DNA from: a virus
Direction: 5' to 3' (one strand)
IMG/VR virus record: IMGVR_UViG_3300025276_000030
Span: 1-64,000 of that record
DNA length: 64,000 nucleotides
The translations under genes and the position numbers were made by a program. The notes beneath the pieces were generated by a model that did not search any database, was not told where the DNA came from, and worked only from the letters and a program-made list of their open reading frames with translations. Below, in pieces: positions 165-20,521 of this stretch. Numbering within the stretch: position 1 is the first letter of the stretch; every line of letters starts with the position of its first letter.

Positions 165-2576
165 TTAATTGCTTAGTTTAGAATTTAGTACGAGTGTTTC
201 TCCGACTTTTGCTCCATCAAGGTAAACATCTCCTCCAGAACCGACTATTCTAATTAGTTCTTCTAGGAGTTTTTCTACGTTCCCTCCTAACTTAGTACCT
301 CCCGCCATCGTTAGAGTATCTTCACCTAAAGGCTTTAAAGTAAAATCCCCTACAGTTCCTTCTGTTGCTTGTCCTGTTGAAGCAGTACTTCTAGATTTAG
401 CTAGCGATAAGTCTCTCACTGCTGATGCTGCATCTATTGCTACAGATACTCCTGTACCAATACCGGGTATAATGCTGGCTGCACCAGATGCTAATTCCAT
501 TGCTGCTCCTACATAATCTCCTTTTGCTGCTCTTGATATTGCAAATCCAATTCCGGCTAATGCTCCTATAATAGGAATTTTCTTTATTAAACTCCTTCCT
601 ACAGCTTTTGCTCCTATTTTAGCACCAGCTTTAGCTAATCCTTTTCCTGCAATACCTTTTGTAGTTTTAGCAGCGACGTCTGCAACTTTTGCTGATTTTC
701 CTCCCAAGGTTAAAGCTGACTTTAGTCCTTTTGCTCCTTTAATTAACTTAGAAAAAGTTTTTGCAAGACCTTTAAACTTCCCAAATAGACTAAGACCTCC
801 TATTGCTGCTATAGTACCTAATGCTACTCCAGCGTACTGTGAAATGCTTTCGAAGACTTTTGCTATTCTTTCTAACGGATCTCCCAAAGCCATAACGGAT
901 TCTTTCATTTGTTTTTGAAGTTCTAGCTGAGCTTCTGCCATTGACTGGTTATCTAACTGTCTCATCAGCTCATCATTTCCAGCTTGTTCGGTAAGCTTAG
1001 CCATAGCAGCTGTCTTTTCTACTCCATCTTTCATTAAAGATACTTCTTTGTACCTATTCTTTACTGCTGCATCTAAACCTTTACTTTGGTCCCCTCCTAA
1101 TTCTGTAATAGCTTTTTGTGACATTAGTGACTTTGCTACTTCTTCTCTAGACATTCCCATTGCCTTAGCAAGAGATTCCTGCTGTATAACGTTAAGATTA
1201 CCAAATTCTTCTGCTGAACCTAGATTTTTAGCTAGCTCTGCTGCTAATGCTGCCTGATCTCCTGATAATGCTGCTGCTCTAGCTTTATCTAAATTCAGGT
1301 CTTTACCTAGTAGTAATTCTGCTTCCATTTCAGCTGCAATACTGGATTCAAAGTTTAATAGGTTAGCACCGGCGCTGTTTAATGTACTGAAGCTTAATCC
1401 TAACTTTCTAGCTTGATAAGCTGCTTTAGCAATACCTCCTGGGAATTTAGAAGTTGTTAACTGTGTAGCTGCCGAAGCTCCTGCTACATCTTGCATTATA
1501 TCTTGATACTTTATTGCTGTTTTATTGTTAATGTTTTGGAATTTAACCTGGCCTATGATACCCTCTGTAACACCTTTCAGCTCTTTTCCGGTTGCAGCGG
1601 AGAACTTTGCTAGGTTACCAGCTTCTTCGGAACTTAGACCAAGTCTGTTGGTCATTGTTGCAATAGTCTGAAGAGTGTCGTTAGATAAATCTGCTTGAAT
1701 ACCAAATTGACTTGATATATCTTTATTTGCTTTTAATATATCTGCACCGACTAACCCTTTTAATGTAACTCCAAGTTTATTGAATCTGACATTTAGCTGA
1801 AATGCCTCTTCTCGAGACATATTTAAGTTTCTTGAGAGGTCGGTAATTCTTTCATTACCTTCTTTAAGTCCTCCATATATGGTTGCTCCTGCAAATACAG
1901 CAGCGGCTTTCAGACCTGCTTTTGCTATTTGTTTAAATCCAGCAACAGTAACATTTTTACCTTCTACACCTGCTTTTCTTGCTTCATCTGCTCCGTTTTT
2001 AAAATCAGTAAACAGTTTACCAATAACTGGTATATCTTTAGTAAAGTCATTTAACGTATCAAAAAATTTAGTACTCTTGTTAAGCTTTGTATTAGTTTGC
2101 TCAATCTTATCAAAAGTCTTTAGTAAAACTTTTGCATTATCAAGGGATCCCCCTAAAGCTTCAGCTGATTTTTCAAGAGCTCTCTGGTTTTGTCCCGTAG
2201 CATTTGCTGCTTTCTCCATCAAAACAGCTATTTTTGATTCTATTGCTTGAATAGAACCTTTTACAGCTGCTTGTTTCCTAAGTAGAGCGTTTGTTTTTTT
2301 CTTGTCTTTTAAATCATCTGCTGTAAATTTAGATATATCAGAAGCATACTTACTTACTTGCTTAGTTAAGTTTTGTGCTGATTTAATTTCACCTGCAAAA
2401 TCTTTAGATCCTTTTGCTATGTTACCTATATGTGTAGAGAGACTAATTAGATGTTGACCTGCCTCTTCAGCTTCTTTAGAAAAGATTTTAACTTGTTCCG
2501 AAGCAGATCCCATGCTACTAGCTAAATCTTTAGCTTTGTTTGGATCCGGTATGCTATTATTTTTATCTTCAGCCAT
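165..2576 (-). CDS. Tape measure protein (gp29-like role)
   Basis: This 803-residue protein follows the tail chaperone genes, the usual place for the tape measure that sets tail length and is ejected during infection. The sequence is Ala/Lys/Gly-rich with long predicted helices. Hydrophobic stretches lie in the C-terminal third, around residues 580-600 (AGVALGTIAAIGGL) and 670-720 (IGALAGIGFAI), as is usual for tape measures. The N-terminal 170 residues look like coiled coil. A TATTTATA motif lies 20 bases upstream. It is longer than T4 gp29 (about 590 residues). The family is assigned by position and composition, not by a diagnostic motif. Confidence 0.75.
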   Translation of the reverse strand: MAEDKNNSIPDPNKAKDLASSMGSASEQVKIFSKEAEEAGQHLISLSTHIGNIAKGSKDFAGEIKSAQNLTKQVSKYASDISKFTADDLKDKKKTNALLRKQAAVKGSIQAIESKIAVLMEKAANATGQNQRALEKSAEALGGSLDNAKVLLKTFDKIEQTNTKLNKSTKFFDTLNDFTKDIPVIGKLFTDFKNGADEARKAGVEGKNVTVAGFKQIAKAGLKAAAVFAGATIYGGLKEGNERITDLSRNLNMSREEAFQLNVRFNKLGVTLKGLVGADILKANKDISSQFGIQADLSNDTLQTIATMTNRLGLSSEEAGNLAKFSAATGKELKGVTEGIIGQVKFQNINNKTAIKYQDIMQDVAGASAATQLTTSKFPGGIAKAAYQARKLGLSFSTLNSAGANLLNFESSIAAEMEAELLLGKDLNLDKARAAALSGDQAALAAELAKNLGSAEEFGNLNVIQQESLAKAMGMSREEVAKSLMSQKAITELGGDQSKGLDAAVKNRYKEVSLMKDGVEKTAAMAKLTEQAGNDELMRQLDNQSMAEAQLELQKQMKESVMALGDPLERIAKVFESISQYAGVALGTIAAIGGLSLFGKFKGLAKTFSKLIKGAKGLKSALTLGGKSAKVADVAAKTTKGIAGKGLAKAGAKIGAKAVGRSLIKKIPIIGALAGIGFAISRAAKGDYVGAAMELASGAASIIPGIGTGVSVAIDAASAVRDLSLAKSRSTASTGQATEGTVGDFTLKPLGEDTLTMAGGTKLGGNVEKLLEELIRIVGSGGDVYLDGAKVGETLVLNSKLSN

Positions 2577-2605: not shown

Positions 2606-2634
2606 CAAAGGCCTCTTTTAGTTAGAAGCCTTTG
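2606..2634 (-). terminator. Hairpin terminator after tail chaperone genes
   Basis: On the coding strand the arms CAAAGGC and GCCTTTG form a 7-bp stem with a 15-base loop. The TAA stop of the frameshift frame (2618-2620) lies in the loop. The distal arm runs straight into CTATTTATA instead of a clean T run. Confidence 0.6.
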
Positions 2635-2873
2635 TTGAGTAATTGGGTTTTATGTTAGGTTTTGCAATTTGAGGTGTTGATTTAGTTGGTGCGGGTGGAG
2701 CGGCTTCATTAGCTTGTTCAAAATGTTCTTTAATTTTATTGAACGTAAACTTCCTTAACCAGATTGGCATATTATATACTGTATCCCAGTCATACCCGCC
2801 GTTACCATTAAACACAATTTCGTGTATAGCTGTAAATAAATTTAACCTATACGCCTGTGTCAGGCCAAAAAAA
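2618..2873 (-). CDS. Frameshift extension of tail assembly chaperone (GT-like)
   Basis: This frame opens just after a TAA that lies upstream of a run of seven T on the coding strand (2867-2873), and it continues to the TAA at 2618. It overlaps the last codons of the 248-residue chaperone in the +1 (equivalently -2) frame. From GGC after the T7 it encodes 82 residues, beginning GLTQAYRLNLFTAIHEI, mostly helical, with a Pro/Lys-rich tail. Called as a separate gene it would need the weak GTG at 2813-2815, which has no promoter or ribosome-binding signal. Many tailed phages make a second tail chaperone by frameshifting at this place, upstream of the tape measure. I read it as the C-terminal part of a fusion of about 324-325 residues. 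Confidence 0.7.
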
Positions 2874-3593
2874 GTTTAGCCCTATGGGCAAATCAACTTC
2901 CTCCTCTCCGCCATCGTCATCCGATAGCATAAATTTCATGTTAACATCGCAATTTACTTTTGCATACTCTTTTCTTAAAGCTCTAGCATCTTTTGCTAAG
3001 AGGTAAGTATCGACGAATGATCTAATATCTTTTTGTTCTGTTTGTCCGTTTATAGAAGTTATAATCCTCTTTAGTCTTGTAGTGACTTCTGGGGATGCAT
3101 TTTTATTAAGCTTTTTTAGGCCTTCTAATTCTCTTTCTATATTTTTTTCATCACTATGATTCAATAATTTAAATGTAACAACATTACCTGTAGACGGTAA
3201 AGGGAAAGTAAATTCATTTTTACCTTCTGTTACTGCTTTTTCATCTAAATACTTAAGTTCCAATGTAGATAAGTCTACTACTTGTGGTCCTCCGTAGTTA
3301 AATTCATAATCTTTACCGTAGGATAGTATTCTAGCTGCAAACATAATTGCATTTTTGTCTCCTACTAGTAGCTGATTATAGTCTACTCCCTCTGTAATAA
3401 TAAGAGATTTTAGTAGCCTGTCTATTACTGTTCCGTTTTTAATGTAGTTCTGATTGGTTAAGATGTCTTCTTCTTTTGCAGTCATATACTTCATTTCGAT
3501 TACTCCTTTCGCAAGGGGAGTATCTTTAGGGTACAGCAAGCCTTTAGAAGGTAGTTCTACTGTTTCAGTAGGCACTTTAAATTGTGATTCCAT
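2847..3593 (-). CDS. Tail assembly chaperone / gp26-like baseplate hub protein
   Basis: This 248-residue protein starts MESQFKVPTETVELPSKGLL. The features VELPSKG, an MTAKEED segment near residue 40 and an RILSYGKDY segment near residue 90 resemble the T4 gp26 baseplate-hub family. A longer frame could begin at 3659, but the TATTTATA motif (3624-3631) lies inside that extension, 30 bases before ATG 3593, so I chose 3593. The C-terminus NFFWPDTGV is encoded across a T7 run, where a shift would join it to the downstream frame. It lies between tube and tape measure, where tail assembly chaperones are normally encoded. Confidence 0.7.
   Translation of the reverse strand: MESQFKVPTETVELPSKGLLYPKDTPLAKGVIEMKYMTAKEEDILTNQNYIKNGTVIDRLLKSLIITEGVDYNQLLVGDKNAIMFAARILSYGKDYEFNYGGPQVVDLSTLELKYLDEKAVTEGKNEFTFPLPSTGNVVTFKLLNHSDEKNIERELEGLKKLNKNASPEVTTRLKRIITSINGQTEQKDIRSFVDTYLLAKDARALRKEYAKVNCDVNMKFMLSDDDGGEEEVDLPIGLNFFWPDTGV
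2867..2873 (-). promoter_or_regulatory. Candidate slippery sequence (T7) for ribosomal frameshifting
   Basis: The coding strand reads AAC TTT TTT TGG in the zero frame. A +1 or -2 slip on the seven T gives GGC CTG ACA in the downstream open frame. The downstream frame is closed by a TAA only one codon before this run, and the zero frame ends at TAG 2847-2849, so any shift must occur in this short interval. Confidence 0.6.
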
Positions 3594-3710: not shown

Positions 3711-4196
3711 TTAGTAGTTCAATACGCAGTAATCCATTGCTACTGTAATACTGATTTCAACAGCTTCGTCTGATGTCCAATCATATTGACCGAAATCTCC
3801 GTTTGTTAATATAGCACCCTTAACGATCCATTCTCCTACAATGTCTCCAACTGGTCCTAATATGTTTAATGTTAAATCTTTCTTATAGAAATCTGAATAA
3901 CCTGCTCTACCTGTTACTGATTCGTAACCCTGTCTAGCCCATTCCATTACTGCTTGTGCTCCGGAAGGTGTTATTGGATCGTATAATGTCATGGTCATAT
4001 CGTCCCATTCTCTTTTCCCTCTAATTTTTCTATATGAATTGATGTGGTCTAGTTTGATTACGTTATCCGTAAAGGTAGGAGCCTTTACATTCTTTACCAT
4101 GAAGGAAGGAATGCCGTCGATAAGCATAACAAATCTATTCTGTACCTTTGGTTCAAAGGCCTTGAACATTATTTCGTTTGGATCTAATACTGCCAT
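3711..4196 (-). CDS. 19: Tail tube protein (gp19-like)
   Basis: This 161-residue protein is close in length to T4 gp19 (163). It lies directly downstream of the sheath gene, as in T4. Family-like features are the N-terminal MFKAFEPKVQNRFVMLIDGI stretch from residue 10, the IRGKREWDDMTMTLYDP segment and the late NGDFGQYDWTSDEAVEI segment. The product should form the inner tail tube through which DNA and tape measure pass. A TATTTATA motif lies 16 bases upstream and a strong terminator follows, so this gene may be transcribed as a single unit as well as by read-through from the sheath gene. Confidence 0.88.
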   Translation of the reverse strand: MAVLDPNEIMFKAFEPKVQNRFVMLIDGIPSFMVKNVKAPTFTDNVIKLDHINSYRKIRGKREWDDMTMTLYDPITPSGAQAVMEWARQGYESVTGRAGYSDFYKKDLTLNILGPVGDIVGEWIVKGAILTNGDFGQYDWTSDEAVEISITVAMDYCVLNY

Positions 4197-4234: not shown

Positions 4235-5992
4235 TTATCCGTTAAATGTTGCTCCAGTAGGCTCAACTGTAAAGTCTAATACTATAAATTCTGCCGTTTT
4301 AGCTGGCTGAATAAAGATTTGACCTATTAGTTGGTTTCTGTCTACGACATCTGCGGTGTTGTTTGTGTCATCCATTACTACTCTATAAGTATAAAGACCT
4401 TGTCTCTGTACCACTGATTCTAAGTAAGGATTAACCACTGATAGGAATCTATTTCTAGTTGCTACAGTATTTTGTTCAAATACTAAAGTTCTAGCTTGAT
4501 CTCCTAAGAATTTCTTAAGTTCAATTAATAGCCTTCTAACATTTACCCTGTCTAAAGCTGAAGCTTTAGTCTGTAAAGTTTTTTGTCCAAATACTGCAAT
4601 TCCTTGTCCAGGGAAAGTAGCGATTGGATTAACTTTTCCATCATACAATAAGTCTCGTTGACCTCTTGTTAATTTTTGTTCTGCTTGAACAACTCCTACG
4701 ATACCACCTCTTACTAATCCTGCTGGTGCAAACCATGGTGCTGAACTATTATCTGTAAATGCATATACTCCTGGTATAACACATGAAGCTGGAACGAATA
4801 CGTTTCTTCCTGTAGCTGATACTACTTGTACCCAAGGCCAGTATGAAGAAGCGTACGAACTGTTAAGTGATGTAGCTGTTGACGTAACGTTACTTACTGT
4901 TGCTGCGTAAAGTTCTAAGTCTACTACGGCGATACAGTCACCTCTAGATTCTGCTAGGGTAATAACACTATTTAATGTTCCTGCTTGATCTGCATTTTTG
5001 TAAAGTAGACCAGGTGTAGAGATAATATTAAATATGTATTCGTCTTTATTATTTAAGATTGAAATTGCATCAGTATAATTACCTGATGTTAAACCTTGTG
5101 CGTTTGTATTCGATATAGATGTAAAGTAGTTAGCTGCAGCTGTTGCATTAACTCCTGTTGCACCATGAAAAGATCCTGATTCTACTTTTGGTAGAGATCC
5201 TGAATAAGAATTACCTGCTAAATCGTTCGCTACAGATACTCCATCGTTAGATAAGTACCCAGTTGTTTGAGCATTTACTGCTCCAACATATATGTAGTTT
5301 GATTTGTTAACATAATCTCCAAATGACTTAACATATGTTTTAGTTCCATCTGTTGCTTTAGTCTTGTATTGGGTACCAATTATATTTTCAATATAGTTAG
5401 AAGAATCCGGGTCTAAAGAGATATTGTTAAATGTTTCTAATACTACTTTATTATTATGACTATCGTCACCTCTTCTTACTAATAGAGTAAAAGTACCTTT
5501 CTTATTGTCTCTGTTTTGTATTTCCCATCTGATGTTATCTGCAGATCCTGATACTAGAACTCCACCGCTATTAGCGATTTCGACTCCTGCTACAGAAACT
5601 CCTGTTGAACCATTAAAGATTGCTCCTTTGCCTAATGATTTAATTACGAAAGGTTGTACACTGCCGTTAGCTGATGATGAAATGTGCGTTGATGTCGAAG
5701 GAGTAAATGATCCTGTTACTACTCTGGTTACTAATACTGAACCGCCTCCTTGTTGGAAGTAGTTTTTAACTCCAATAGAAGTTAAATATTCTTGTTTAGT
5801 AGAACCTGATGTAAATGTTTCTCCAAACTTTCTAACGTACTCATTATATGTAGTAACTATAGTTGGTTCTTCTACCGGCCCTTTTACAGTTGGTCCGACG
5901 ATTGCAGCTCCAGCTTCTACCGGAGATGGTTGGATAAACGAAATATCATTTTCTCTCGCAAAAGCACCTGGTGAGATGATTGATTCTGCCAT
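4235..5992 (-). CDS. 18: Contractile tail sheath protein (gp18-like)
   Basis: This 585-residue protein compares with 659 for T4 gp18. The N-terminus contains SPGAFARENDISFI, the conserved sheath start (SPGVxxxExD). The C-terminal third carries the conserved core: an APAGLVRGGI segment, a TFPGQGIAVFGQKTL segment, a VRRLLIELKKFL helix and a final QPAKTAEFIVLDFTVEPTG strand region. The variable middle (about 100-330) is Ser/Thr/Gly-rich and probably forms surface domains. The protein polymerises around the tube and contracts on infection. Two TATTTATA motifs lie upstream (6019 and 6076). No Shine-Dalgarno sequence precedes the ATG. Confidence 0.93.
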   Translation of the reverse strand: MAESIISPGAFARENDISFIQPSPVEAGAAIVGPTVKGPVEEPTIVTTYNEYVRKFGETFTSGSTKQEYLTSIGVKNYFQQGGGSVLVTRVVTGSFTPSTSTHISSSANGSVQPFVIKSLGKGAIFNGSTGVSVAGVEIANSGGVLVSGSADNIRWEIQNRDNKKGTFTLLVRRGDDSHNNKVVLETFNNISLDPDSSNYIENIIGTQYKTKATDGTKTYVKSFGDYVNKSNYIYVGAVNAQTTGYLSNDGVSVANDLAGNSYSGSLPKVESGSFHGATGVNATAAANYFTSISNTNAQGLTSGNYTDAISILNNKDEYIFNIISTPGLLYKNADQAGTLNSVITLAESRGDCIAVVDLELYAATVSNVTSTATSLNSSYASSYWPWVQVVSATGRNVFVPASCVIPGVYAFTDNSSAPWFAPAGLVRGGIVGVVQAEQKLTRGQRDLLYDGKVNPIATFPGQGIAVFGQKTLQTKASALDRVNVRRLLIELKKFLGDQARTLVFEQNTVATRNRFLSVVNPYLESVVQRQGLYTYRVVMDDTNNTADVVDRNQLIGQIFIQPAKTAEFIVLDFTVEPTGATFNG

Positions 5993-6901: not shown

Positions 6902-7810
6902 CTAAGATTTAAGTAAATGTATTGTTGCCCAGTTCTCTACTACCTTACCATTAGGTAGTTTTCTATTACCGAATGTGATTTTATCTACAGGTATGTCTGC
7001 GTATACTCTGCATTCTTTAACCTGCTTAGTGTACCTACCTTTTTCACGTTTACTGTACTTATAATCAAAGTCTTCTTTAGTACTGCTCCTTAATGATTCT
7101 CCATCGTTACCTATTGTTCGTATAGTATCCAGTAACCTTTGTGTTACTGCCTGTGTTACAGGTCCAGAATTCTGTATAATCATTGAATACGTAGGTGAAT
7201 ACACCTTTAAATCAAGACTCTCTAAAAGTACATCTGCAGGAAATTTAATAGGGAGTGCTTGTTCCATAATCTTTGTAGCTCCTTTCCTACTTACCTGGTA
7301 AGCGTGTGCTCCGTAATAGTCAATATTCAGTTCAGTATGGTTAAGGAATTCTGAGTATTTACCGGTATGTGCTATTTCTTTTTCATCCGCATGGTTTGAA
7401 CGTCCCCAGTATATTATATCGTAGTCTGATTTTTTTACATCTTTAGTAATATTTAAAAGCTCCTTATTGTATATATACTTGTAAAACTTTTTAGTAAAAC
7501 GGGCATCATCCTCTAATATTAAACACGATTCATAGTCAGAGGATAAAAAAGTGTTATATGCTTTTTGATGAGTTAAAGCAGTAGCTATGATATTCTTTGT
7601 TAAGAGTCCTACTGGATCTGTAAATACAGGGAATAGTGTCTTACTCTGAATCATATCAGCGATTGATGGAAGGACATCTCCAGTTACTGCTTTAATAACT
7701 TTAAAGTTTAGTCCCGGTATAAATTCTAATTCTTTTAGCAGTGACTCTTTTCGTTCTATATCCTGAGTTCTGTTTAATATGTATATAATGTCTACTCCTA
7801 AGTTTTTCAT
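6902..7810 (-). CDS. Glycosyltransferase family 25-like protein
   Basis: This 302-residue protein resembles family 25 glycosyltransferases (LPS/collagen galactosyltransferase type). Its N-terminal IYILNRTQDIERKESLL matches the family's opening strand, and LILEDDARF near residue 100 is the expected E-D-D/DxD-type metal and sugar-nucleotide site. A YGAHAYQVSRKGA segment near residue 168 matches the later conserved region. It overlaps the preceding gene by ATGA (7807-7810), so the two are probably translationally coupled. Lying among tail fibre genes, it may glycosylate virion proteins or alter host surface sugars. The substrate cannot be read from sequence. Confidence 0.75.
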   Translation of the reverse strand: MKNLGVDIIYILNRTQDIERKESLLKELEFIPGLNFKVIKAVTGDVLPSIADMIQSKTLFPVFTDPVGLLTKNIIATALTHQKAYNTFLSSDYESCLILEDDARFTKKFYKYIYNKELLNITKDVKKSDYDIIYWGRSNHADEKEIAHTGKYSEFLNHTELNIDYYGAHAYQVSRKGATKIMEQALPIKFPADVLLESLDLKVYSPTYSMIIQNSGPVTQAVTQRLLDTIRTIGNDGESLRSSTKEDFDYKYSKREKGRYTKQVKECRVYADIPVDKITFGNRKLPNGKVVENWATIHLLKS

Positions 7811-8697
7811 CTACTAATAATATGTTTATTAAGTTTGCTTTCTAAATACTCTATGCTCATTAATCTAGATGCTTTAATACATCGGTAGAGGTACGATATG
7901 GATTGATTATAATTCCAACCCTCTCTGTTATCTAATATACTCCTCTTTTCGACGCCGTAATGTTTATAAGATAAGAAACTTTCTTCTAACTCCCAAATGC
8001 CATTGTTATTTTTTTCATTTAAAAATTTAATTTTTTCACAAGAGTAGATATTTTTGTTAAGAGTTTGATGTTGTACCTTATCCTGTATTAACATCTCTTT
8101 TAATTGGTATTGTTCACAAGCAGTTAAGTACCCTGTATTTACATTGTTGCCTAGGAGTGCTGTGAACTCTGTTAAGTTTCTAATTACTTGAGTACCGTAT
8201 TCTGCAGCAAATGCTGGATCAGGTAAATATAAAAAGCTAACATTAGCTGCTTTATCTTGTAAGAACTTGATTGGTTGTGTAAGTTTCTTATTGTATACGT
8301 CTTCTGAATGTATATACCAAGAACTCATATCTTCATCGTAGCTATATACTACGCTTTCTTTTAAATGTTCGTCTATATTCTTAAAAATTAAAAAATCATG
8401 GTCCATCATAACCATAGGTTCTGTAGTTTGTGATATAACTTTTGGTTTACATCCTGCCCAGAGAACTTCTCTATTGATATTATCGTTATAACGTAAAGGT
8501 TTAACTTCATGCCATAAGTATAAAATCTCTAACTTTGAAAATTTGTCATAGGTTAAATTATCTACATATAGAATCGTATTATGTTCTGGATGATACTTTC
8601 TCCAGAGGGATACTGATGCTATTAATAATGTGATGTTTAATTTACTGTAGAATGTATCATAACCGGTTACATTTTCATATACCCATTTTACCTGCAT
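7807..8697 (-). CDS. Putative glycosyltransferase (GT-A-like)
   Basis: This 296-residue protein probably has a GT-A-type nucleotide-sugar fold. Its N-terminal half reads like a Rossmann-type sugar transferase, with LYVDNLTYDKF near residue 45 and VMMDHDFLIFKNID near residue 97, where DHD would be the DxD metal-binding motif. It overlaps the family 25-like gene by 4 bases and follows the 182-residue gene by 9 bases, with no promoter motif in between. The pair is probably one functional unit acting in sequence on a glycan. The fold is an inference from short motifs. Confidence 0.5.
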   Translation of the reverse strand: MQVKWVYENVTGYDTFYSKLNITLLIASVSLWRKYHPEHNTILYVDNLTYDKFSKLEILYLWHEVKPLRYNDNINREVLWAGCKPKVISQTTEPMVMMDHDFLIFKNIDEHLKESVVYSYDEDMSSWYIHSEDVYNKKLTQPIKFLQDKAANVSFLYLPDPAFAAEYGTQVIRNLTEFTALLGNNVNTGYLTACEQYQLKEMLIQDKVQHQTLNKNIYSCEKIKFLNEKNNNGIWELEESFLSYKHYGVEKRSILDNREGWNYNQSISYLYRCIKASRLMSIEYLESKLNKHIISR

Positions 8698-11309: not shown

Positions 11310-12041
11310 TTATTTTATATAGATTGCTCCATAAGCGTGATAATCTGTGGTTGAACTATTATAGTACGGCGCATCACTATACCCTCCTCCAGCAAAGTAG
11401 TTACCGGTCCAGCAAGATGAATACCACCAAGGGTTATTGTTATAGTAAGTTGAACAGTTTCCGCTGTTTGTATCTTGATCTTTATCAAATGTAGTTAAGT
11501 TGTTTTGACTAGTAGCATGAGAGTACAATCCTGGTGTAGTACCTCCTACCTGGTTTACTACATTTGCTGCTCCTTCAAAAGCGTATTCGCTGTTAAATCC
11601 GGTTGCTGTCCAAAAAGATCTTTTAGTATGTGAACTTGTAGCATTTAGTGTAACTATAGATCCTGCTACAAATTGAGTAATACTCATTACATTAGCCGTT
11701 TTTCTTCCAGCTAATTCTAGCCAATATCTACACCCTACCCAGGCGTTGACATTAGTTAAACCCAAATTTTTTATTTGTCTTTTACCTGTTACTAGGGTGT
11801 TAGTAGCATCATCTGTTCCGTCCGTTCTATAGTTAACACTATTTACAGCATCTAGGTACTTAAGGTTATTCATACCGGAAGTATATCCCCTATTTGCTAG
11901 TACCATTATCCACCCTCCTCCATCGTAGTCTTGATCAACGTATACAATTACAGGACCATGAGTTGTTTGTATCTTGTAAAATCCGGATGGTCCTTTAATA
12001 TCAGCTGCGCTGTTGTATACTGGTCCTCTGTGTATTCCCAT
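11310..12041 (-). CDS. Fibrinogen-like (FReD) domain adhesin
   Basis: In this 243-residue protein almost the whole sequence is a fibrinogen C-terminal-like domain. Visible landmarks are GFYKIQT then YDGGGWIMV near the N-terminus, TFDKDQDTNSGNCS (the calcium-site and cysteine region), PWWYSSCWTGNYFAGG (the WW-x-x-C block) and a final YGAIYIK. Such domains bind acetylated sugars or glycoproteins. The N-terminal MGIHRGPVYNSA matches the MGIHRG start of the LamG gene at 21849, suggesting a shared docking peptide. It is coupled by TAATG to the giant S74 fibre. It probably acts in receptor binding. Confidence 0.75.
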   Translation of the reverse strand: MGIHRGPVYNSAADIKGPSGFYKIQTTHGPVIVYVDQDYDGGGWIMVLANRGYTSGMNNLKYLDAVNSVNYRTDGTDDATNTLVTGKRQIKNLGLTNVNAWVGCRYWLELAGRKTANVMSITQFVAGSIVTLNATSSHTKRSFWTATGFNSEYAFEGAANVVNQVGGTTPGLYSHATSQNNLTTFDKDQDTNSGNCSTYYNNNPWWYSSCWTGNYFAGGGYSDAPYYNSSTTDYHAYGAIYIK

Positions 12042-15000
12042 TATGCATTTTTTTGTAACTTATTAACAGTAGATTTTAACTCATCTATCTGTACTTGTTG
12101 TTCTTTCATTGCTTCAATAAGTACAGCAGTAAGTTTTTGATAGTCTACTGCTTTATAACCTGATTTTCTAGTTGTTACTAGTTCTGGTAATACTTCTTCA
12201 ACTTCTTGTGCAATGACTCCTATGTCAGATCCTTCTTTATATTGGAATTTTGTATCTTGTTCTTCTTTAGTAAGCTTAATCCAATCAAAAGTAACTCCAT
12301 TAAGTTTATTAATTTTTTCTAATGAGTTTTCTATAGGTTTAATATTCTCTTTTAATCTACTATCAGATGATAAGAATGCTGTTATATCTCCTTCAGCTGA
12401 TATAGCACCTCCTACTACAAGGTTTTGTGCAGTAGTTCTAGATGGTTCACCTATATAGTAAGTTCCAGCTGCGGTTCCTCCATCTAACATCATCGAACCG
12501 TAATATAGTCCAAACTTACCTGATCCGTAACTATTTTGTACTGTATAACCTCCATTAGTCCACATACCGTTACCAATTGCAGAAGTTGTACTACCATTTT
12601 CTAGTATTAACATCTGATGTCCAAGTCCGGCTTTGGATTGTCCATTTATGTTTGTATGAGTAAACGCTAAACCATATAAATTACCAGAGCCTGAACCATC
12701 ATCAGTAAGGTTGTATGCGGCACCCATTGACCAAATATGTTGATATCTTGTTGATGAATATAAACCATATACACCACGTCCGTAGTTGTTAGCTATTAAT
12801 GCTTTTTGAGTACCCATTGTAAGAGTACCTGTGAATGAGTCGGCTGCATCTGATCTTAAGTAAGATGCTCCTTCAACACCATCTAATTTATCAGCATCTA
12901 ATCCTGATGAAGCACCATCATTACGGTCAGACCATTGTTTTGCCCATGCAGTAAAGGTTCCATCGTTATTTCCAGTTCCTCCTGAGTATGTTCTGGTAAA
13001 AAGATTCTCATTGTAGTACGACATTGATTGTTGAAAACCATGGTCGTTACCGTTATTACTATGTCTAACGTTTAGCATATTATGCCAGCTAGATCCGGGC
13101 ATATTTGAAGCAGTGTCCGATTGATAGAAACCAGATGGTAGTGAGTTGTTAAAGTTACTAATGCCGGTAATTCGATTAACACCTGCTAATCCTGTTGAGG
13201 CTTGACTGTGAAAGTAGTTTGATGCTTGTCCTCCAAATGTAGTTGTTGTTGCTGCTGTTGAAGCATGAGAGGCACTTGTTGCTGTTGTTGCATTTCCTGA
13301 TAATGCTCCAAAAAATGTTCCTGCTTGTACTGAAGCGTTATTAGTTGATCCATCTGAGTCGAAATGGAATCTATTAGCGCTATCAGTGAACCTAATAAAG
13401 TCGTCATTACCGAACCTTATTTTATTAGATGAACCTACAACAGGAGTGTTTATTGTTGCTGTCCCGTCTATTCCTACTGATCCATCAAATGAAGATGTAC
13501 CACTTGCATTTACACTAAATATAGGTATACCTGATATATCTGATATATTTAATAGGTCTCCGGTTAAGTCATCTGTTACAGAGAATAATTGTCCTTGAGA
13601 ACCTTGAATATCTACTATTGTTGAACCAGATCCGTAAACATCTAGTTTAGCACTAGGACTGGATGTACCAATTCCTACATTACCTGTAGATCCTTCAAAA
13701 GTTACTTTAGCATTTGAAGGAGCGTGTATGTTTGTTGATTGAGCTTGCCAGTGAAAATTAAGACTACTACCTTTAGCTGGTCCATCTGGAGATATTGACC
13801 ATACATTATATGCTGAAGTACTAGGTCCTTGTACAAATACAAGACCATATTCTGGATGAGCAGCATCGTTATAGGTAGAGGCTAACATCATACCTGTTAA
13901 AGTACCATGATTACTTATACCTACTCTACCGTTGGTATACATACCGTTAGCTCCTGTAAACGTATTTGAACCTACTTGTAATTTATTAAAAGCACTAGCT
14001 ATTCCAATACCAACATTTCGAGTTGACTTATCTACAAAGATTCCAGTCTGACCACCTGATTGTATTATTGTGTTTGTTCCAGATTCTCCACCAAAATACA
14101 TTGCGCCAGAATTATATCCTGCGTTTCCTTTAGTAACTCCTTGAGCTTTAAAAACATTCATAGCACCATAAGAGGAGCTTGTTGTGTCAAAAATAGCTGT
14201 AGTTGGAACTGTAGATACTACATGTAATCTAGCACCAGGGGTGGCCGTACCAATACCAACTTTTCCGGTACTTTTAAGCACCATGTTTGTAACATGGAGA
14301 GGACCTGCTTTTGTGTAGAGGTGCAAATCTCCTGTTGCCCAGCCTCCGTTTACTCCAGCTGTTTTTTGTGCTGCTATTCCAGCGATTGATACAGTATTAC
14401 CGGCACTTGGTGTTTCTCTGGTAGCAAAAGATAATTTTGACCAAGTACTATCAGTACCGTTTATATTAAATATTGATAGTCCAAGTGTTGCTTGATCTAT
14501 AGCTCCGGTTGCACTACTATCGTTTCTTATAATTACTCTAGGTTCATGTAAATATGCGCTTGAACCATTTACATACCCATCATAAATCTGTTCACCGTTT
14601 CCAGTACTTGTATCAAGACCAACTTTAAGAGTAGTAGTTTGTGTACGACCATCGACACGTAGACGGTGATCATTTGATATAATACCTACTCCTAGGTTAC
14701 CATTTTCAGAAAGTTCCATTTTAACGTTCGACCAGTCTGCTGAACCAGATCTACTAGTGTACCAGTAATGAGAGTGATGTTCAGTAGCAACTGCTCCTAT
14801 TGTTCTCCAGTGACCGGAATAGTAATGTAGATCGTTACCGTATGATCTAAGCATTCCTCCATATGCACCTATAACTCCTAATTCTAAACTTGCATAGTTA
14901 GATGTACCACCAATTCGTAAAGCCATTTTACCATTTGATCCACCGGTACCTATATTAATATTAAGAGGTCCTGCTGGTGCATTTGTTCCAATACCGACTT

Positions 15001-18000
15001 TTCCGGATTGTACAACCATTGTTGTGCCTCCGCTAATACCTAAATTTATATTTCCTTGGTATGAGGTAATAAGCATAGGGTGAGATGAGCCTGCTTCTAT
15101 TCTAGCAGTAGCACTATCCCAGTACCCAATTGCCATATTTTCATTAGCTGTGCCTGTAGCTATTAAATATCTTCTGTTTGTTCTTATATCACCAATAACA
15201 TCTAACTTTTCACCAGGAGCAACTGTTCCAATACCGACTTTACCGTCTCCTGTAATGTTCATTAGATTATCTGATCCCCAATGTCCAAAAGTTAATACGT
15301 TTGTATTACTAGCATCTGCTGCCCATTTATACCCTATATAACCTGAGTTCTTGGTAGTTCCTGATTTTCCTACTACTAATATGTGGTTCTGATTTGCAGC
15401 GTTATTAGCTGCGAAAGCTTCTAACGAATGGATGAATGTTGAAGAGCTTGGATTATCTATCGACAGTGTTGCAGCGTTAGCAAGACCGGTTGCAGTCATT
15501 GCTACTGGTAGTTCAAATTTACCACCTTTTCTTGCATCAGTAACATTATATACTGAAGTGCTTGCTAGATACCAGGTAAATGTACTAGATCCTCCAGATA
15601 CGTAAACATGCCCTCCACCGTTAAATGTACCGCTGTCTCCACAATGTGAAACCCTAGCATACCACTCCCATTTACCTGTTCCTGCAGTATTTGTTAACCA
15701 GTAAGATGTATTATTACTTCCTTGAGCATTTTCTGCAATTACAAGAGATCTACCTGTACCTAGTTTAGCTTGAAATATCTGTACAAACGTTTGATTATCT
15801 TGTGATGGAATAGTGTTAATAAATCCTCCGTGACCTGGTGAGGTAGCGGCACCGTTGTGTACTATTTTTAGGACAATTCCTGAACTGTTTGGTGCAGATG
15901 CTCCTAAAGTTGTACTGTCTGCTTCTCTAGTTATTACTACTCCTGCTCCACCGGAATTATTATACACTCCAGTGCCGTTAGAACCTACACGAAACTCTTC
16001 ATCTCCGTAGAGCCTACGTCCACTGTTTCTTACTGAAGTTACAATTGGATTCCAAGGACCTCTTTCAGTAGAATTACTTGGTAAATCTAGTACCAGTTTG
16101 CCGTCTACTATTAAAGAACCTAAAGTTACAGCATTTGCAGTTGCTGCAGTATTTGCAAAAATTGCGTGGGAAGCACTTGTTGCATTAGTCGCAGTTCCAG
16201 TTAAAGCTCCTGTGAAGGTAGTAGCAGTAAGATTTCCAGCTGCAGTAAGAGTGGCTTTGATATTCCCATTTATAATAAAAGATAATGGATGATTACTCAT
16301 TGTACCCACTTTACCAGCTGCGTGTCCGGTGTGAGAGTACATTGAGGTAATGATACCGTCACTAACAGACTTAACATCTAGTCTAGCGTGAGAAGATCCT
16401 GCTACATTTACTCTTCCGTTCCAACCTCCATCATTACTAACACTAGCATACCCATTTCCAAATTCATTATATGAGTTAGAAAAAGAATTAACTCCAGATG
16501 CTAAGTTGTTTGATGCAAGTCTGAGAAATTCTGTTGAATCTAAATTGTCTAGTTTATCTGCATTAGTTGCTGTAGCTGCGTTACCGGTAATATTGCTATC
16601 AGTAAACGCTACAGTTTTCCAGACTTGAGTAGTATTAATTGCAGTATTAGCAAATTTTCTATAATACAAGTTTCCGTTAGAACTAAAACCTAATTGACTG
16701 TAATAATTACCTGGGTGCCTGCTTAGAGTAAGAATTGAATTTGCGTTATCGGTTGCTGCAAAAAGACCTGTTGTAGTTGAATTAAGAGCATATGGATAAG
16801 CTACTGTTCCATCACCACGTTGAGTTGTTATTCCACTACCATCATTTCGTAATAAAAATGCTCCAGTTGCATTACCAGTAAGCGCTCCTGTAAAAGTAGT
16901 TGCAGATACTCCAGCTGTAAATTGAGCAGATTGATTATTAGCTATAGTCAACGCTAAAGTTCCTCCTTGACCACCATGTGCTTCACCTGTCGTGGTACCG
17001 TTAGTATAGAACTTTATAGGATCTGTTGAGTTAATTCTCATGTTGTTATCACCTACACTTATAGAAGAAACTGTTCCGTCTGATTCACCTATTCGTATTG
17101 TAGCTACATCATTTGTTTCTATTACTACTGTATCATATCTAATTTTTCCTATAGGACTTGCTCCTTTAGATATTCTTACTAGAGGTCCTAGATCTGCTCC
17201 TGTTGATCCGTTAGCTATTAAATCTTGAACATGTAATTTAGCAGTTGGTACTGCTATACCCATTCCCACTAAACTTCCTGTGACTACAAGGGCGTTAGTA
17301 TTATAATCACCCAATGTAACAGTTGAATCAGATTCTACCTCTAGTAAAGGTGTACCCGATATGTCACTAACTGAGAATAAAGAACCTGATAGGGAATCTG
17401 TTATTGAGAATAATTGACCTTGAGATCCGTTAACTTCAAAGACTGTAGAACCAGATCCATATACTTCTAATTTAGCTGATGGTGATATTGTTCCGATTCC
17501 TACATTTCCGGAAGAACCTTTAATTGTCATTCTAGTCTGCAGAGTCCCTGAACCGTTATTAGTGTTCTTAAAGTATATGTCACTATATACTCCGTTATTT
17601 CCTGCAAAGTGGTTAGCAATATCTAATGTAGCATTACCTGTACTGTATAGGAATGTTCCTTTTAAAGTAGCATGTGTAAGATACTTTGCTTCGAAACCAA
17701 TTTGCTGTCCATCAGCTGTTGAATTGGCAGATATTCTAGAATTAGCTCTGTGTACAGAAAGAGTTGAAGTTGGGGTAGTTGTACCTATCCCCATAAGTCC
17801 GCCTGCAGTTATCGTTACAGCATCTCCAGTACTTCCGTTGGGTCTAAAGAAGATTCCTCTTCCTGTTGCACTTGCTAAGAATAAACCATCACCTGTGCTA
17901 GTGTGTCCAAAGACTCTATTAAATCCATTTGTTTTCCCACCAAATCCAACCATTCCATAACTTCCGCCGTAAGTCCCATCTTGATCTATATGTACAATTG

Positions 18001-20521
18001 CTCCAACATCTAAAAGAGATTGAGGACTACTCGATCCAATACCTAATCTACCATTAGCTTTTAAAACCATTCTAATAGATGGAGCTTGTCTTGCTGATGT
18101 AGATGTCTTAAATTCTATTCTACCGTTAAAGTTACCATCATCGGTAGCTTTTATTTCAGCTGTATTCCATATATATGATAGGTTAGCAGCGTAACCGCTT
18201 CTAAAAGCTAATACTCCTCCTCCATTAGCATAAAAACCACCAATAGTAAGGGTGTTAGTTGCCATATGATCTCCAACTTGAAGCTTACTTACAGGATTAG
18301 GTGTTCCGATACCTACGTTACCGTTAGAACCGGTTATAAAAATATCATTTGAAGTTCCGTCTCTCCCTACTCTAATTGAGCGGGTAGCTGAATTAGAACC
18401 GAATACTGAAATACCACTAGCGTCTTTCATCAATGCTGTACCACCTTGAACCATTGATGTTCCGTAGATAGTTCCTTGATAGGTAAAGTTCATATTACCG
18501 TTAACATCTGATGTCCACGTGTGAGTTTTTAAACCACTCCCGTAATATTGTCTCCAGTTTACTGTTGTTCCTCCGTTAGAAGCTCCGTCGTTAAAATGAA
18601 TATAGTGGTTACCAGCAGAATCATAAGCATCGTAATACAAATGCCCTTTATAGTGATTTTGTGCACTGGTAAATGTAATTGCACCTGTAGCTGTGTCTGT
18701 TGTGTCGCTTCTTAAAAATGATGTTGAGTTTATTCCGTCTAGTAACATTGCATTAGAAGCAGTAGTTGCTGTTGCTGCTGTTTGTGCTGCTAATCCAGAG
18801 GTTGGGCCATCATTACCTGCATGCCAGTATTTACTTCCAGCATTGTCACTGCTTCCTTTCCATAAATCACCATCTGGTCCCATAACGGCGACGCTGCCAC
18901 CTGCTCCAGAACCAAAATAAACTCCTCCAGTTCCATCATAATAGTTCAGATATGTAGCAGAAGCTCCTATTGCAGCATCTAAATGTAAATTACCATTTGT
19001 AGTTCCTATAGAAGCAGCATCTGCAGTAGAATTATTAGAGTCATTACCAATGATGAGAGATTTAGACCATGTTGAGTTTGGTCCTATAATAATTTTATGG
19101 GTACTAGCTAATGTTAAATCTCCGTCTAAATTTAAAGAGCCTGTAAAGTCGTGATTATCACCTGATGTATCTCCAAATTTAGTTGACCCTGATTCGTATA
19201 GTATTGAAGCACTTACTAGTTCACTTTTGAATTGCTGTGCTGTGATTGTACCGGTTACTGATAAGTCTCCTGTAATTGATGTTGATTTATCTATAGTTAC
19301 AGATGTCTGAGCATGTATTTCTATGGTTCCAGTATTGTGAAGATATCCCAACCAACCGGCGTTGTTAGCAGCCGCATCACCAAACATATAATAAGCGTCA
19401 GTTGTGGATGATTGTTGTACTATAGATCTTGTAGTTCCTTTAACATGTAAAAAGGTAGTTGCATCGTAAGGTGCTCCTGTAGTACCTGGACCTAGAGATA
19501 GTACTCCTGTTAGTTTAGCTGTACCTGCTTGTAAATAACCATCTACAACTGAAGAGCTTCCTGTGGACTTTACTATTCTAACTCCTTTATATTTACCACC
19601 TGCAGAACCATTGTTATTTTGTTGGCCGATCAACATTACTTTATCGTTATAAGTACTTGCTGTTGTTTCTAGGGTAAAATGAAAAGACTGTGACCAGTCA
19701 TCACCAGCTGTACCACCTTGGAATATCCATCTATTACTAGAGTTTCTAAACCAAGTATAACCGCTATGGTCTACTAAGTCTAGACTGTTGTAATCGTTTG
19801 CATTATATAAATGACCAGTCATTTGAATGTTTGCTGCTGCGTTTATATAATTGCTGAATTGTTTTACTCCTGAAATAACTTCGTTTCCAGTTAAAGATAC
19901 CTTGGTGGCATCAGTACCAGTAACACCTGTTAAGCCTGCTCCAGATCCAGTAAAAGAAGTTGCTGTTACTGTTCCTGTAAAAACTCCTCCAGTAGTTGAT
20001 ATTGTTAATTGAGTATTAGAATTTGTCGTTCTTCTTAATATAAGGTCCTCATCGTAAGATGATACGAGACCGGTATCTACAGTAAGACTTTTGTTAAAGT
20101 AGTTTGTTGGTCTGTCTGTACCAAAATGATTGTAACTAGCATTTGCTGGTCCCATTTCTGCATACCCATATAAGGTTTGAACCCTAAATTGCCCATTATT
20201 AGCTTGTGATAGGTATTCTGTTGCTGTAGTATTTCCATTTAACGTTATGTTACCTGCAAAAGATGCGTTTTGTGATGCATCTAAACCTAAAGCTTCAGTA
20301 CCAACTGTAAAAAACTTCATTGTTGAACCAAGAGATTCAGCTCTTAATTCTACGTTATCTCTATCAGAAGAATTTAATATTAATTTAGCCCTGATGGTTC
20401 CCGCATCAGTTAAGAAAATATTATCTTCAGCTGAAATATTTCCTGTAGTAATTAGAGACCCAGTGATCTCAGAGTTAGCAAGGGATTTATATCCCTTCCT
20501 CATTAAAAATTCATTTGCCAT
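12041..20521 (-). CDS. Giant tail fibre with C-terminal S74 intramolecular chaperone
   Basis: This 2826-residue fibre is built of long repetitive beta-rich sequence with about 11 VGIGTxxPxxKL-type repeats, one 39-residue TAQ-F module (19133-19249) and many Ser/Gly/Thr stretches. The C-terminal 108 residues are a peptidase S74 domain. Ser2719 and Lys2724 in SDSRLK match the catalytic Ser-Lys spacing of endosialidase-type chaperones, and EEVLPELV and YKAVDYQKL follow. In known cases the domain trimerises and folds the fibre, then cuts itself off. The start MANEFLMRKGYKSL lies 38 bases after a TATTTATA motif. It is more than twice the length of T4 gp34. Confidence 0.88.
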   Translation of the reverse strand: MANEFLMRKGYKSLANSEITGSLITTGNISAEDNIFLTDAGTIRAKLILNSSDRDNVELRAESLGSTMKFFTVGTEALGLDASQNASFAGNITLNGNTTATEYLSQANNGQFRVQTLYGYAEMGPANASYNHFGTDRPTNYFNKSLTVDTGLVSSYDEDLILRRTTNSNTQLTISTTGGVFTGTVTATSFTGSGAGLTGVTGTDATKVSLTGNEVISGVKQFSNYINAAANIQMTGHLYNANDYNSLDLVDHSGYTWFRNSSNRWIFQGGTAGDDWSQSFHFTLETTASTYNDKVMLIGQQNNNGSAGGKYKGVRIVKSTGSSSVVDGYLQAGTAKLTGVLSLGPGTTGAPYDATTFLHVKGTTRSIVQQSSTTDAYYMFGDAAANNAGWLGYLHNTGTIEIHAQTSVTIDKSTSITGDLSVTGTITAQQFKSELVSASILYESGSTKFGDTSGDNHDFTGSLNLDGDLTLASTHKIIIGPNSTWSKSLIIGNDSNNSTADAASIGTTNGNLHLDAAIGASATYLNYYDGTGGVYFGSGAGGSVAVMGPDGDLWKGSSDNAGSKYWHAGNDGPTSGLAAQTAATATTASNAMLLDGINSTSFLRSDTTDTATGAITFTSAQNHYKGHLYYDAYDSAGNHYIHFNDGASNGGTTVNWRQYYGSGLKTHTWTSDVNGNMNFTYQGTIYGTSMVQGGTALMKDASGISVFGSNSATRSIRVGRDGTSNDIFITGSNGNVGIGTPNPVSKLQVGDHMATNTLTIGGFYANGGGVLAFRSGYAANLSYIWNTAEIKATDDGNFNGRIEFKTSTSARQAPSIRMVLKANGRLGIGSSSPQSLLDVGAIVHIDQDGTYGGSYGMVGFGGKTNGFNRVFGHTSTGDGLFLASATGRGIFFRPNGSTGDAVTITAGGLMGIGTTTPTSTLSVHRANSRISANSTADGQQIGFEAKYLTHATLKGTFLYSTGNATLDIANHFAGNNGVYSDIYFKNTNNGSGTLQTRMTIKGSSGNVGIGTISPSAKLEVYGSGSTVFEVNGSQGQLFSITDSLSGSLFSVSDISGTPLLEVESDSTVTLGDYNTNALVVTGSLVGMGIAVPTAKLHVQDLIANGSTGADLGPLVRISKGASPIGKIRYDTVVIETNDVATIRIGESDGTVSSISVGDNNMRINSTDPIKFYTNGTTTGEAHGGQGGTLALTIANNQSAQFTAGVSATTFTGALTGNATGAFLLRNDGSGITTQRGDGTVAYPYALNSTTTGLFAATDNANSILTLSRHPGNYYSQLGFSSNGNLYYRKFANTAINTTQVWKTVAFTDSNITGNAATATNADKLDNLDSTEFLRLASNNLASGVNSFSNSYNEFGNGYASVSNDGGWNGRVNVAGSSHARLDVKSVSDGIITSMYSHTGHAAGKVGTMSNHPLSFIINGNIKATLTAAGNLTATTFTGALTGTATNATSASHAIFANTAATANAVTLGSLIVDGKLVLDLPSNSTERGPWNPIVTSVRNSGRRLYGDEEFRVGSNGTGVYNNSGGAGVVITREADSTTLGASAPNSSGIVLKIVHNGAATSPGHGGFINTIPSQDNQTFVQIFQAKLGTGRSLVIAENAQGSNNTSYWLTNTAGTGKWEWYARVSHCGDSGTFNGGGHVYVSGGSSTFTWYLASTSVYNVTDARKGGKFELPVAMTATGLANAATLSIDNPSSSTFIHSLEAFAANNAANQNHILVVGKSGTTKNSGYIGYKWAADASNTNVLTFGHWGSDNLMNITGDGKVGIGTVAPGEKLDVIGDIRTNRRYLIATGTANENMAIGYWDSATARIEAGSSHPMLITSYQGNINLGISGGTTMVVQSGKVGIGTNAPAGPLNINIGTGGSNGKMALRIGGTSNYASLELGVIGAYGGMLRSYGNDLHYYSGHWRTIGAVATEHHSHYWYTSRSGSADWSNVKMELSENGNLGVGIISNDHRLRVDGRTQTTTLKVGLDTSTGNGEQIYDGYVNGSSAYLHEPRVIIRNDSSATGAIDQATLGLSIFNINGTDSTWSKLSFATRETPSAGNTVSIAGIAAQKTAGVNGGWATGDLHLYTKAGPLHVTNMVLKSTGKVGIGTATPGARLHVVSTVPTTAIFDTTSSSYGAMNVFKAQGVTKGNAGYNSGAMYFGGESGTNTIIQSGGQTGIFVDKSTRNVGIGIASAFNKLQVGSNTFTGANGMYTNGRVGISNHGTLTGMMLASTYNDAAHPEYGLVFVQGPSTSAYNVWSISPDGPAKGSSLNFHWQAQSTNIHAPSNAKVTFEGSTGNVGIGTSSPSAKLDVYGSGSTIVDIQGSQGQLFSVTDDLTGDLLNISDISGIPIFSVNASGTSSFDGSVGIDGTATINTPVVGSSNKIRFGNDDFIRFTDSANRFHFDSDGSTNNASVQAGTFFGALSGNATTATSASHASTAATTTTFGGQASNYFHSQASTGLAGVNRITGISNFNNSLPSGFYQSDTASNMPGSSWHNMLNVRHSNNGNDHGFQQSMSYYNENLFTRTYSGGTGNNDGTFTAWAKQWSDRNDGASSGLDADKLDGVEGASYLRSDAADSFTGTLTMGTQKALIANNYGRGVYGLYSSTRYQHIWSMGAAYNLTDDGSGSGNLYGLAFTHTNINGQSKAGLGHQMLILENGSTTSAIGNGMWTNGGYTVQNSYGSGKFGLYYGSMMLDGGTAAGTYYIGEPSRTTAQNLVVGGAISAEGDITAFLSSDSRLKENIKPIENSLEKINKLNGVTFDWIKLTKEEQDTKFQYKEGSDIGVIAQEVEEVLPELVTTRKSGYKAVDYQKLTAVLIEAMKEQQVQIDELKSTVNKLQKNA
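12044..12367 (-). other. Peptidase S74 self-cleaving chaperone domain
   Basis: Residues 2719-2826 of the giant fibre. The Ser codon at 12365-12367 starts S-D-S-R-L-K, with Lys five residues after Ser as in known S74 proteins. The C-terminal EAMKEQQVQIDELKSTVNKL is a typical terminal coiled coil. Cleavage next to the Ser is expected from the family. Confidence 0.85.
19133..19249 (-). repeat. 39-residue fibre module, copy 1
   Basis: Encodes TITAQQF, then YESGSTKFGD and FTGSL, near residues 425-463 of the S74 fibre. The same module occurs at 26831, 30389 and 37557 in other fibres. Confidence 0.75.

What the first reader, a model, noticed from the sequence alone, without database searches (positions are those of the whole stretch)
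2618..3593. Probable programmed +1/-2 frameshift in a T4-type tail assembly chaperone
Seen: a run of seven T on the coding strand (2867-2873) lies 17 bases before the stop of the gp26-like gene. The downstream frame is blocked by TAA one codon before this run, then stays open through GLTQAYRLNLFTAIHEI into a helical 82-residue extension ending at 2618. The extension has only a weak GTG as an alternative start. Known: many tailed phages make a fused tail chaperone by frameshifting just upstream of the tape measure (most by -1, Mu by -2, some Listeria phages by +1). A frameshift joining a gp26-like protein to such an extension in a T4-type phage would be notable.
Basis: partly seen in the sequence, partly recalled or inferred. 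Interest (0 to 1): 0.85.

Follow-up and report, generated by a model that had tools for sequence, protein, structure and literature searches.

The report
+1 frameshift in T4-type tail chaperone
A T4-type virus of bacteria appears to make a short and a long form of a tail-building helper protein from one gene by having ribosomes skip one base at a nearly unchanging site (UUU-UGG-CCU), a trick that a standard review says T4 lacks and that hundreds of related environmental phages share.

Summary
Confirmed and extended. The gene at 3593-2847 is a PF12322/PHROG150 protein (T4 gp26/gp51 family, the T4-type tail assembly chaperone). Seventeen bases before its stop lies a T7 run in CTTTTTTTGGCCTGA; the +1 frame then runs 82 codons into a conserved extension with no convincing start of its own. 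In 275 distinct relatives this +1 layout is almost universal. Substitution periodicity switches from frame 0 to +1 there. Variants (TTC TTT TGG CCT; TTT CTT TGG CCT) keep a one-base YUU-to-UUU slip but argue against a -2 shift and poly-U transcriptional slippage. Two relatives that give the extension its own ATG have an eroded slip site. T4 makes short and long forms from two genes (26, 51); the complete relative immuto has one; marine cyanophages use -1 at the same Phe-Phe codons. A GGAGG about 30 bases upstream is conserved and unexplained. No frameshift was measured. -1 sites in T4-like chaperones are reported; I found no report of +1. New variant of a known kind.

The parts
2847..3593 (-). 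Tail assembly chaperone, short form (TAC-N; T4 gp26-like, 248 aa), ATG 3593 to TAG 2847
   Evidence: phrog_150 8e-12 and PF12322 8.7e-5 (22.7 bits, just under the cut-off) for the window protein; 51 of 65 relatives hit PF12322, best 5e-22; AF2 pLDDT 92
2862..2876 (-). Slip site AAC TTT TTT TGG CCT: P-site UUU (2870-2868) slips one base to UUU; 0-frame A-site UGG (2867-2865); next +1 codon GGC (2866-2864)
   Evidence: 248 of 275 distinct relatives identical at TTT TTT TGG CCT, most others conservative variants; the three most codon-biased columns of 138 lie here; only 1 change in 46 independent pairs over 12 nt
2867..2873 (-). T7 run, preceded by C; the base before the Phe codons is C, G or A in all TTT TTT cases of this family, whereas it is T in the -1 cyanophages
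2847..2849 (-). 0-frame stop TAG, 17 nt after the T run
2876..2878 (-). TAA stop blocking the +1 frame just upstream of the slip site (another, TAG, at 2882-2884)
   Evidence: comparable stops within 45 nt in 133 of 262 relatives
2618..2866 (-). +1-frame extension (82 codons, GLTQAYRLNLFTAIHEIVFNGNGGYDWDTVYNMPIWLRKF...), C-terminal domain of the long form (324 aa in all), counterpart of the T4 gp51 C-terminus
   Evidence: about 53-82% identity in relatives; hhalign collinear with cyanophage gp51 (1.5e-5) and T4 gp51 C-terminus (1.2e-4); PHROG150 match extends from 233 to 264 of 282 when fused
2900..2906 (-). Shine-Dalgarno-like GAGGAGG about 30 nt upstream of the P-site codon; conserved, role unknown
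   Evidence: GGAGG within 25-45 nt upstream in 77/87, 50/88, 11/54 and 35/37 sequences of four groups against 3, 2, 1 and 0 in an adjacent control window
165..2576 (-). Probable tape measure protein (803 aa) immediately downstream
   Evidence: position and length; the gene at the same position in immuto is annotated tail tape measure protein
3711..4196 (-). Tail tube protein (gp19-like), upstream neighbour
   Evidence: phrog_4542 1.2e-23
4235..5992 (-). Tail sheath protein
   Evidence: phrog_23 4e-73

Best explanation
The locus is a tail assembly chaperone gene of a T4-type phage that yields two proteins. Most ribosomes stop at TAG 2847 and make the short form (TAC-N, gp26-like). A fraction, with peptidyl-tRNA-Phe on UUU (2870-2868) and UGG in the A site, slip one base forward so that the tRNA re-pairs with UUU (2869-2867). 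They then read GGC CUG ACA ... to TAA 2618 and make a 324-aa long form with a gp51-like C-terminal domain. By analogy with lambda gpG/gpGT, many short copies would coat the tape measure protein and the few long copies would recruit tail tube subunits. Shown by comparison: the conserved gene pair, the +1 frame relation, the conserved slip codons, the absence of a conserved start for the extension, the relation to gp26/gp51. Inferred: that slippage occurs, its rate, which tRNA slips, and what the two forms do.
For: +1 relation in all 80 nearest relatives, in nearly all of 275 distinct sequences from four groups, and in isolates immuto, Mel-JY01, RM378, SP-15, LIS04 and Streptococcus phage GXN1. 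P-site Phe is TTT 264/264 (background 82%), CCT 99.6% against 41%, GAC 97.5% against 27%. Substitution phase 248/111/496 in frame 0 upstream, 367/224/837 in frame +1 downstream. 107 of 262 have no ATG/GTG/TTG in the +1 ORF upstream of the slip and 75 none through extension codon 18. Variants TTC TTT TGG, TTT CTT TGG and TTT TTT TAC, and TTT TTT CGT in the SP-15 group, keep a one-base YUU-to-UUY slip. Natural exceptions L306 and L311, with a separate ATG-started extension, have an eroded site. Single chaperone gene in the complete immuto genome versus two in the T4 control. T4 gp26 ends at the same junction where gp51 continues.
Against: No proteomic or reporter data. No conserved RNA structure next to the site, and the SD-like element is too far upstream to act as in RF2, so the stimulator is unknown. 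UGG is not obviously a starved codon. Direct profile similarity of the extension to T4 gp51 is only moderate (28% probability, E 1.2e-4), stronger through cyanophage sequences. A few distant relatives (LIS04, LR756508, the TTA TTT AAT CCC subgroup) do not fit the same slip codon exactly.
Confidence: 0.9

Rival explanations
1. A -2 ribosomal shift on the T7 run (as in phage Mu) reaches the same frame.
For: Reaches the same frame; on seven T the P-site tRNA can re-pair two bases back (sequence).
Against: In the group with TTC TTT TGG CCT a -2 move puts tRNA-Phe on UCU, which it cannot read; in the SP-15 group TTC TTT CGT has the same problem. A one-base forward slip fits all but a few distant variants.
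Confidence: 0.04
2. Transcriptional slippage: RNA polymerase drops one U (or adds two) on the T7 run, so edited mRNA encodes the fusion.
For: A seven-T run; slippage on long homopolymers is known in bacteria (PMC5009743).
Against: Relatives with only four consecutive T (TTC TTT TGG) or with TTTCTTT keep the layout and the same downstream codons; the run is never lengthened by a preceding T in the TTT TTT sequences; conservation extends to TGG CCT GAC, which slippage on T would not need.
Confidence: 0.04
3. The extension is a separate gene with its own start, or is translated by coupling from the overlapping stop.
For: L306, L311 and perhaps L088 do have it as a separate ATG-started ORF; a GTG exists in the window at 2815.
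Against: In 75 of 262 relatives no ATG/GTG/TTG occurs in the +1 ORF through extension codon 18, and in 107 none upstream of the slip; the window's GTG lies inside the conserved part; nucleotide conservation sits at the slip site and is relaxed precisely in the separate-gene cases.
Confidence: 0.02
4. Homopolymer sequencing error splitting a single long gene.
For: T7 runs are error-prone, and a 6-T version would be one open frame.
Against: Same in hundreds of independently assembled contigs and in complete isolate genomes; present also without a long T run.
Confidence: 0.003

Closest known systems
Lambda gpG/gpGT-type tail assembly chaperone frameshift (Xu, Hendrix, Duda 2004; review PMC5009743)
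   Same: Gene between tail tube and tape measure; slip near the end of the short ORF; short and long forms sharing an N-terminal domain; downstream ORF without its own start.
   Different: Shift is +1 rather than -1 (or -2 in Mu); the protein family is PF12322 (T4 gp26/gp51), with UUU_UGG_CCU in place of a heptameric -1 slippery site. The review states this frameshift is conserved in long-tailed phages 'except T4'.
T4 gp26 and gp51 (Vladimirov, Gautam, Davidson 2022, known here only through citing papers PMC10885494 and PMC12846349)
   Same: Same family; gp26 corresponds to the short form and gp51 to the long form; gp26 ends where gp51 continues.
   Different: T4 uses two separate genes; here one gene with a +1 shift.
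Marine cyanophage gp26 plus small 'gp51' ORF (P-SSM4 and its IMG/VR relatives); T4-like poly-T -1 signals mentioned in PMC12846349
   Same: Same Phe-Phe codon pair, same type of extension.
   Different: Extension in the -1 frame with NNT TTT TTC (T before the Phe codons in 80 of 80), instead of +1 with C or G before them.
RF2 (prfB) +1 frameshift, CUU_UGA_C (own knowledge; CUU_U noted in PMC10885494)
   Same: P-site YUU slips forward to UUU before a UGN codon followed by C; the CUU variant is present in L055, L068 and immuto.
   Different: A-site is a sense codon (UGG), not UGA; no SD 3 nt upstream, instead a conserved GGAGG about 30 nt upstream.
Listeria phage PSA/A118/A500 +1 shifts (CCC_UGA) and archaeal HSTV-2, described as very likely +1 (PMC5009743)
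   Same: +1 shifts in phage tail or capsid genes.
   Different: In the Listeria phages other genes (major tail protein, capsid) and Pro codons; the HSTV-2 site was not compared here.

Membership tests
T4 gp26/gp51 family (PF12322, PHROG150) | Profile match of the short form | tested here: met
   phrog_150 8e-12; PF12322 8.7e-5, 22.7 bits, slightly under the 24.5-bit cut-off for the window protein, but 51 of 65 relatives match it, best 5e-22
T4 gp26/gp51 family (PF12322, PHROG150) | Extension related to the gp51 C-terminus | tested here: met
   Moderate: hhalign 1.2e-4 (28%) directly, 1.5e-5 to cyanophage extensions, which match gp51 at 5.6e-9 (95%); PHROG150 match grows from 233 to 264 of 282 when fused
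Programmed-frameshift tail assembly chaperones (G/GT type) | Gene between tail tube and tape measure | tested here: met
   tube 3711-4196, chaperone 2847-3593, probable tape measure 165-2576
Programmed-frameshift tail assembly chaperones (G/GT type) | Overlapping ORF in another frame with conserved slip site and no independent start | tested here: met
Programmed-frameshift tail assembly chaperones (G/GT type) | Chaperone fold | tested here: inconclusive
   Foldseek rank 2 is HK97 chaperone 2OB9 (TM 0.50 on target, E 1.2) and rank 22 is YqbN 3KLU, neither significant
Programmed-frameshift tail assembly chaperones (G/GT type) | Both short and fused proteins detected | not testable with these tools
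   needs proteomics
Lambda-type -1 frameshift | Downstream frame is -1 with an XXXYYYZ heptamer | tested here: not met
   frame is +1; the perfect -1 heptamer T_TTT_TTT is avoided: the base before the run is never T in TTT TTT sequences
RF2-type +1 site | YUU slips to UUU in the P site | tested here: met
   sequence pattern only: UUU in 264 and CUU in 4 of 268
RF2-type +1 site | Stop codon in the A site and SD about 3 nt upstream | tested here: not met
   UGG in the A site; GGAGG about 30 nt upstream

The most novel reading that the evidence does not exclude
T4-type phages form a natural series in which the register of a short T run on a conserved Phe-Phe codon pair sets the direction of the programmed shift (C or G before the pair goes with +1, T with -1), and T4 itself replaced the shift by gene duplication; the +1 form also uses a new kind of stimulator, a GGAGG placed about one ribosome length upstream.
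Probability: 0.35. Interest if true: 0.82.

Novelty: new variant of a known kind. Interest (0 to 1): 0.72.

Why it matters
Tail chaperone frameshifting was described as conserved in long-tailed phages 'except T4' (PMC5009743), and the paper that identified the T4-type chaperones argued in its title for another mechanism (cited in PMC10885494). This locus shows that a large, abundant part of the T4-type world very probably uses a +1 shift at an exceptionally conserved recoding motif, while cyanophages use -1 and T4 two genes. That makes the evolutionary route between frameshift and gene duplication testable, explains annotated 'hypothetical' ORFs, and offers a bacterial +1 site on a sense codon for mechanistic work in Bacteroidota, hosts with unusual ribosome-SD behaviour (own knowledge).

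Tried and rejected
Conserved RNA structure near the site: RNAalifold gives none, mean z about -0.5 to -1, and pairwise column tests gave only isolated pairs in the extension, no helix. Independent start for the extension rejected as a general explanation. -2 shift, transcriptional slippage and sequencing error disfavoured from slip-site variants. Direct profile comparison of the full fused family with T4 gp51 or gp26 alone was too weak. XacN1 relatives: none in IMG/VR. Phage tRNAs in the window: none. The key paper (Vladimirov 2022) is not held, so whether it mentions any +1 case is unknown.

Full report
What is there. On the minus strand, between a gp19-like tail tube gene (3711-4196, phrog_4542 1.2e-23) and a long probable tape measure gene (165-2576), lies an ORF from ATG 3593 to TAG 2849-2847. 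Its product matches PHROG150 'baseplate hub' (8e-12) and PF12322 T4_baseplate (8.7e-5; 22.7 bits against a cut-off of 24.5; 51 of 65 relatives match, best 5e-22). Elsewhere in the window the major head protein, portal and terminase genes fit a T4-type myovirus. The record is a 70.9-kb IMG/VR contig.

Is it more than chance? All 80 closest IMG/VR relatives have the extension in the +1 frame with near-identical slip sites. A wider set gives 275 distinct sequences: TTT TTT TGG CCT in 248, TTC TTT TGG CCT in 12, TTT CTT TGG CCT in 3, CTT TTT TGG CCT in 3, TTT TTT TAC CCT in 2, and single variants including RM378 (TTT TTT TGG AAT). Among 138 codon columns with a conserved amino acid, the three with the strongest departure from background codon use are slip-site codons: GAC 97.5% (background 27%), CCT 99.6% (41%), P-site TTT 264/264 (82%). 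The codon before the Phe pair ends in C even when synonymous T is commoner (AAC 108/108, background 33%; GAC 41/41, background 27%). In 46 non-overlapping sequence pairs, changes fall 248/111/496 on codon positions 1/2/3 of frame 0 upstream and 367/224/837 on positions 1/2/3 of frame +1 downstream, with one change in the 12-nt site. Part of the Pro and Asp codon constraint follows from dual coding (WPD in frame 0, GLT in +1); the base before the run does not follow from that.

What it is. T4 gp26 and gp51 both match PF12322 (8.8e-64 and 3.9e-52); gp51 has about 45 more residues at the C-terminus, and gp26 ends (GLKEFFELL) where gp51 continues. So T4 carries a short and a long form as two genes; PMC10885494, citing Vladimirov et al. 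2022, states the same for some T4-like chaperones. In the window phage the long form would come from the +1 frame. The extension profile aligns collinearly with cyanophage extensions (1.5e-5) and with the gp51 C-terminus (1.2e-4, probability 28%), while cyanophage extensions match gp51 well (5.6e-9, 95%). Fusing the extension lengthens the PHROG150 match from position 233 to 264 of 282 and raises some distant members, e.g. L183 from 27.8 to 37.0 bits, though not others. In the complete immuto genome a family profile finds only one copy, whereas the T4 control region gives both genes. A model of the short form (pLDDT 92) resembles BFVD baseplate-hub proteins (E down to 1e-18); in the PDB nothing is significant, but the HK97 tail assembly chaperone ranks second.

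How it works. The slip-site variants point to one rule: a (U/C)UU codon in the P site followed by a codon starting with U or C, so that the tRNA can re-pair one base forward on UUU or UUC. TTC TTT TGG speaks against -2 re-pairing and leaves only four consecutive T, too few for transcriptional slippage; CTT TGG is one base from the RF2 site CUU UGA (own knowledge; RF2-like CUU_U sites also noted in PMC10885494). In the SP-15/Streptococcus-phage group the site is mostly TTT TTT CGT CC or TTC TTT CGT CC, again +1. In marine cyanophages the same Phe pair is NNT TTT TTC with the extension in -1 (78 loci; T before the pair in 80 of 80). In the +1 family the base before TTT TTT is never T; the only five T cases have TTC TTT. 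I infer that the register of the T run sets the direction. Independent starts are not available in many relatives. Where the extension has its own ATG (L306, L311) the slip codons have decayed (TTC TTG TAT CCT; TTC CTT TGG CCA), and L368 is an in-frame fusion. No RNA structure is conserved. A GGAGG about 30 nt upstream is strongly enriched in groups only about 40% identical (77/87, 50/88, 11/54, 35/37 against 3, 2, 1, 0 in a control window); its spacing matches neither RF2 (3 nt) nor dnaX-like (about 10 nt) stimulators (own knowledge), and I have no explanation beyond a possible upstream pause or ribosome queue.

Comparison and novelty. The review PMC5009743 says G/GT frameshifting is conserved in long-tailed phages except T4, and lists +1 in Listeria capsid and tail genes and, as very likely, in archaeal HSTV-2. 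PMC12846349 attributes poly-T -1 signals in T4-like TAC-N genes to Vladimirov et al.. I found no report of the +1 form in this family, but the key paper is not held. I therefore call it a new variant of a known kind: same architecture and probable role as G/GT, different protein family, different direction and motif. Annotators have missed it: in immuto the extension is annotated as a 36-aa hypothetical protein beginning at an internal ATG.

Limits. Everything about translation is inferred from conservation; efficiency, the slipping tRNA and the functions of the two forms are untested. Sequences in IMG/VR share ancestry, so counts are not independent events; the pair test and the agreement of groups only about 40% identical partly correct for this.

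Noticed in passing
window 2900-2906 and homologous positions in L001-L312: Conserved Shine-Dalgarno-like GGAGG 25-45 nt upstream of the slip site, with GAG chosen over GAA 122 of 132 times at codon -12; no stimulator known to me has this spacing.
   Followed up: partly
L306 2717-3040, L311 2714-3011: Extension is a separate ATG-started gene with about 25 extra N-terminal residues and the slip site is eroded: natural loss of the frameshift.
   Followed up: yes
L368 2001-2891: Cyanophage-type chaperone with short and long parts fused in frame (TCT TTT TGG TTA), like T4 gp51; not checked for a second short copy or a sequencing error.
   Followed up: partly
L214 7624-8525 (P-SSM4) and L317-L396: Cyanophage gp26 and 'gp51' look like one gene with a -1 shift at NNT TTT TTC; annotated as two genes.
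   Followed up: partly
L088 (LR756511) 3771-3930: Huge-phage relative in which the extension seems to be a separate ORF starting at an ATG overlapping the stop (TAATG).
   Followed up: no
L424, L427, L429, L433: Subgroup with GAA TTA TTT AAT CCC AGT: extension still +1 but no YUU-Y slip; CCC_A may be the slip codon instead.
   Followed up: no
MW353176 150607-150717 (L082 3854-3964): In isolate phage immuto the extension is annotated as a 36-aa hypothetical protein starting at an internal ATG: a probable misannotation.
   Followed up: yes
window 6902-8697: Two ORFs, the first with weak glucosyltransferase similarity (phrog_2835 5.7e-6), sit inside the tail module upstream of the sheath gene.
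   Followed up: no
window 12041-20521 and 24392-33046: Two very long ORFs (2826 and 2884 aa); the first matches tail fibre families at its C-terminus, the second was not examined.
   Followed up: no
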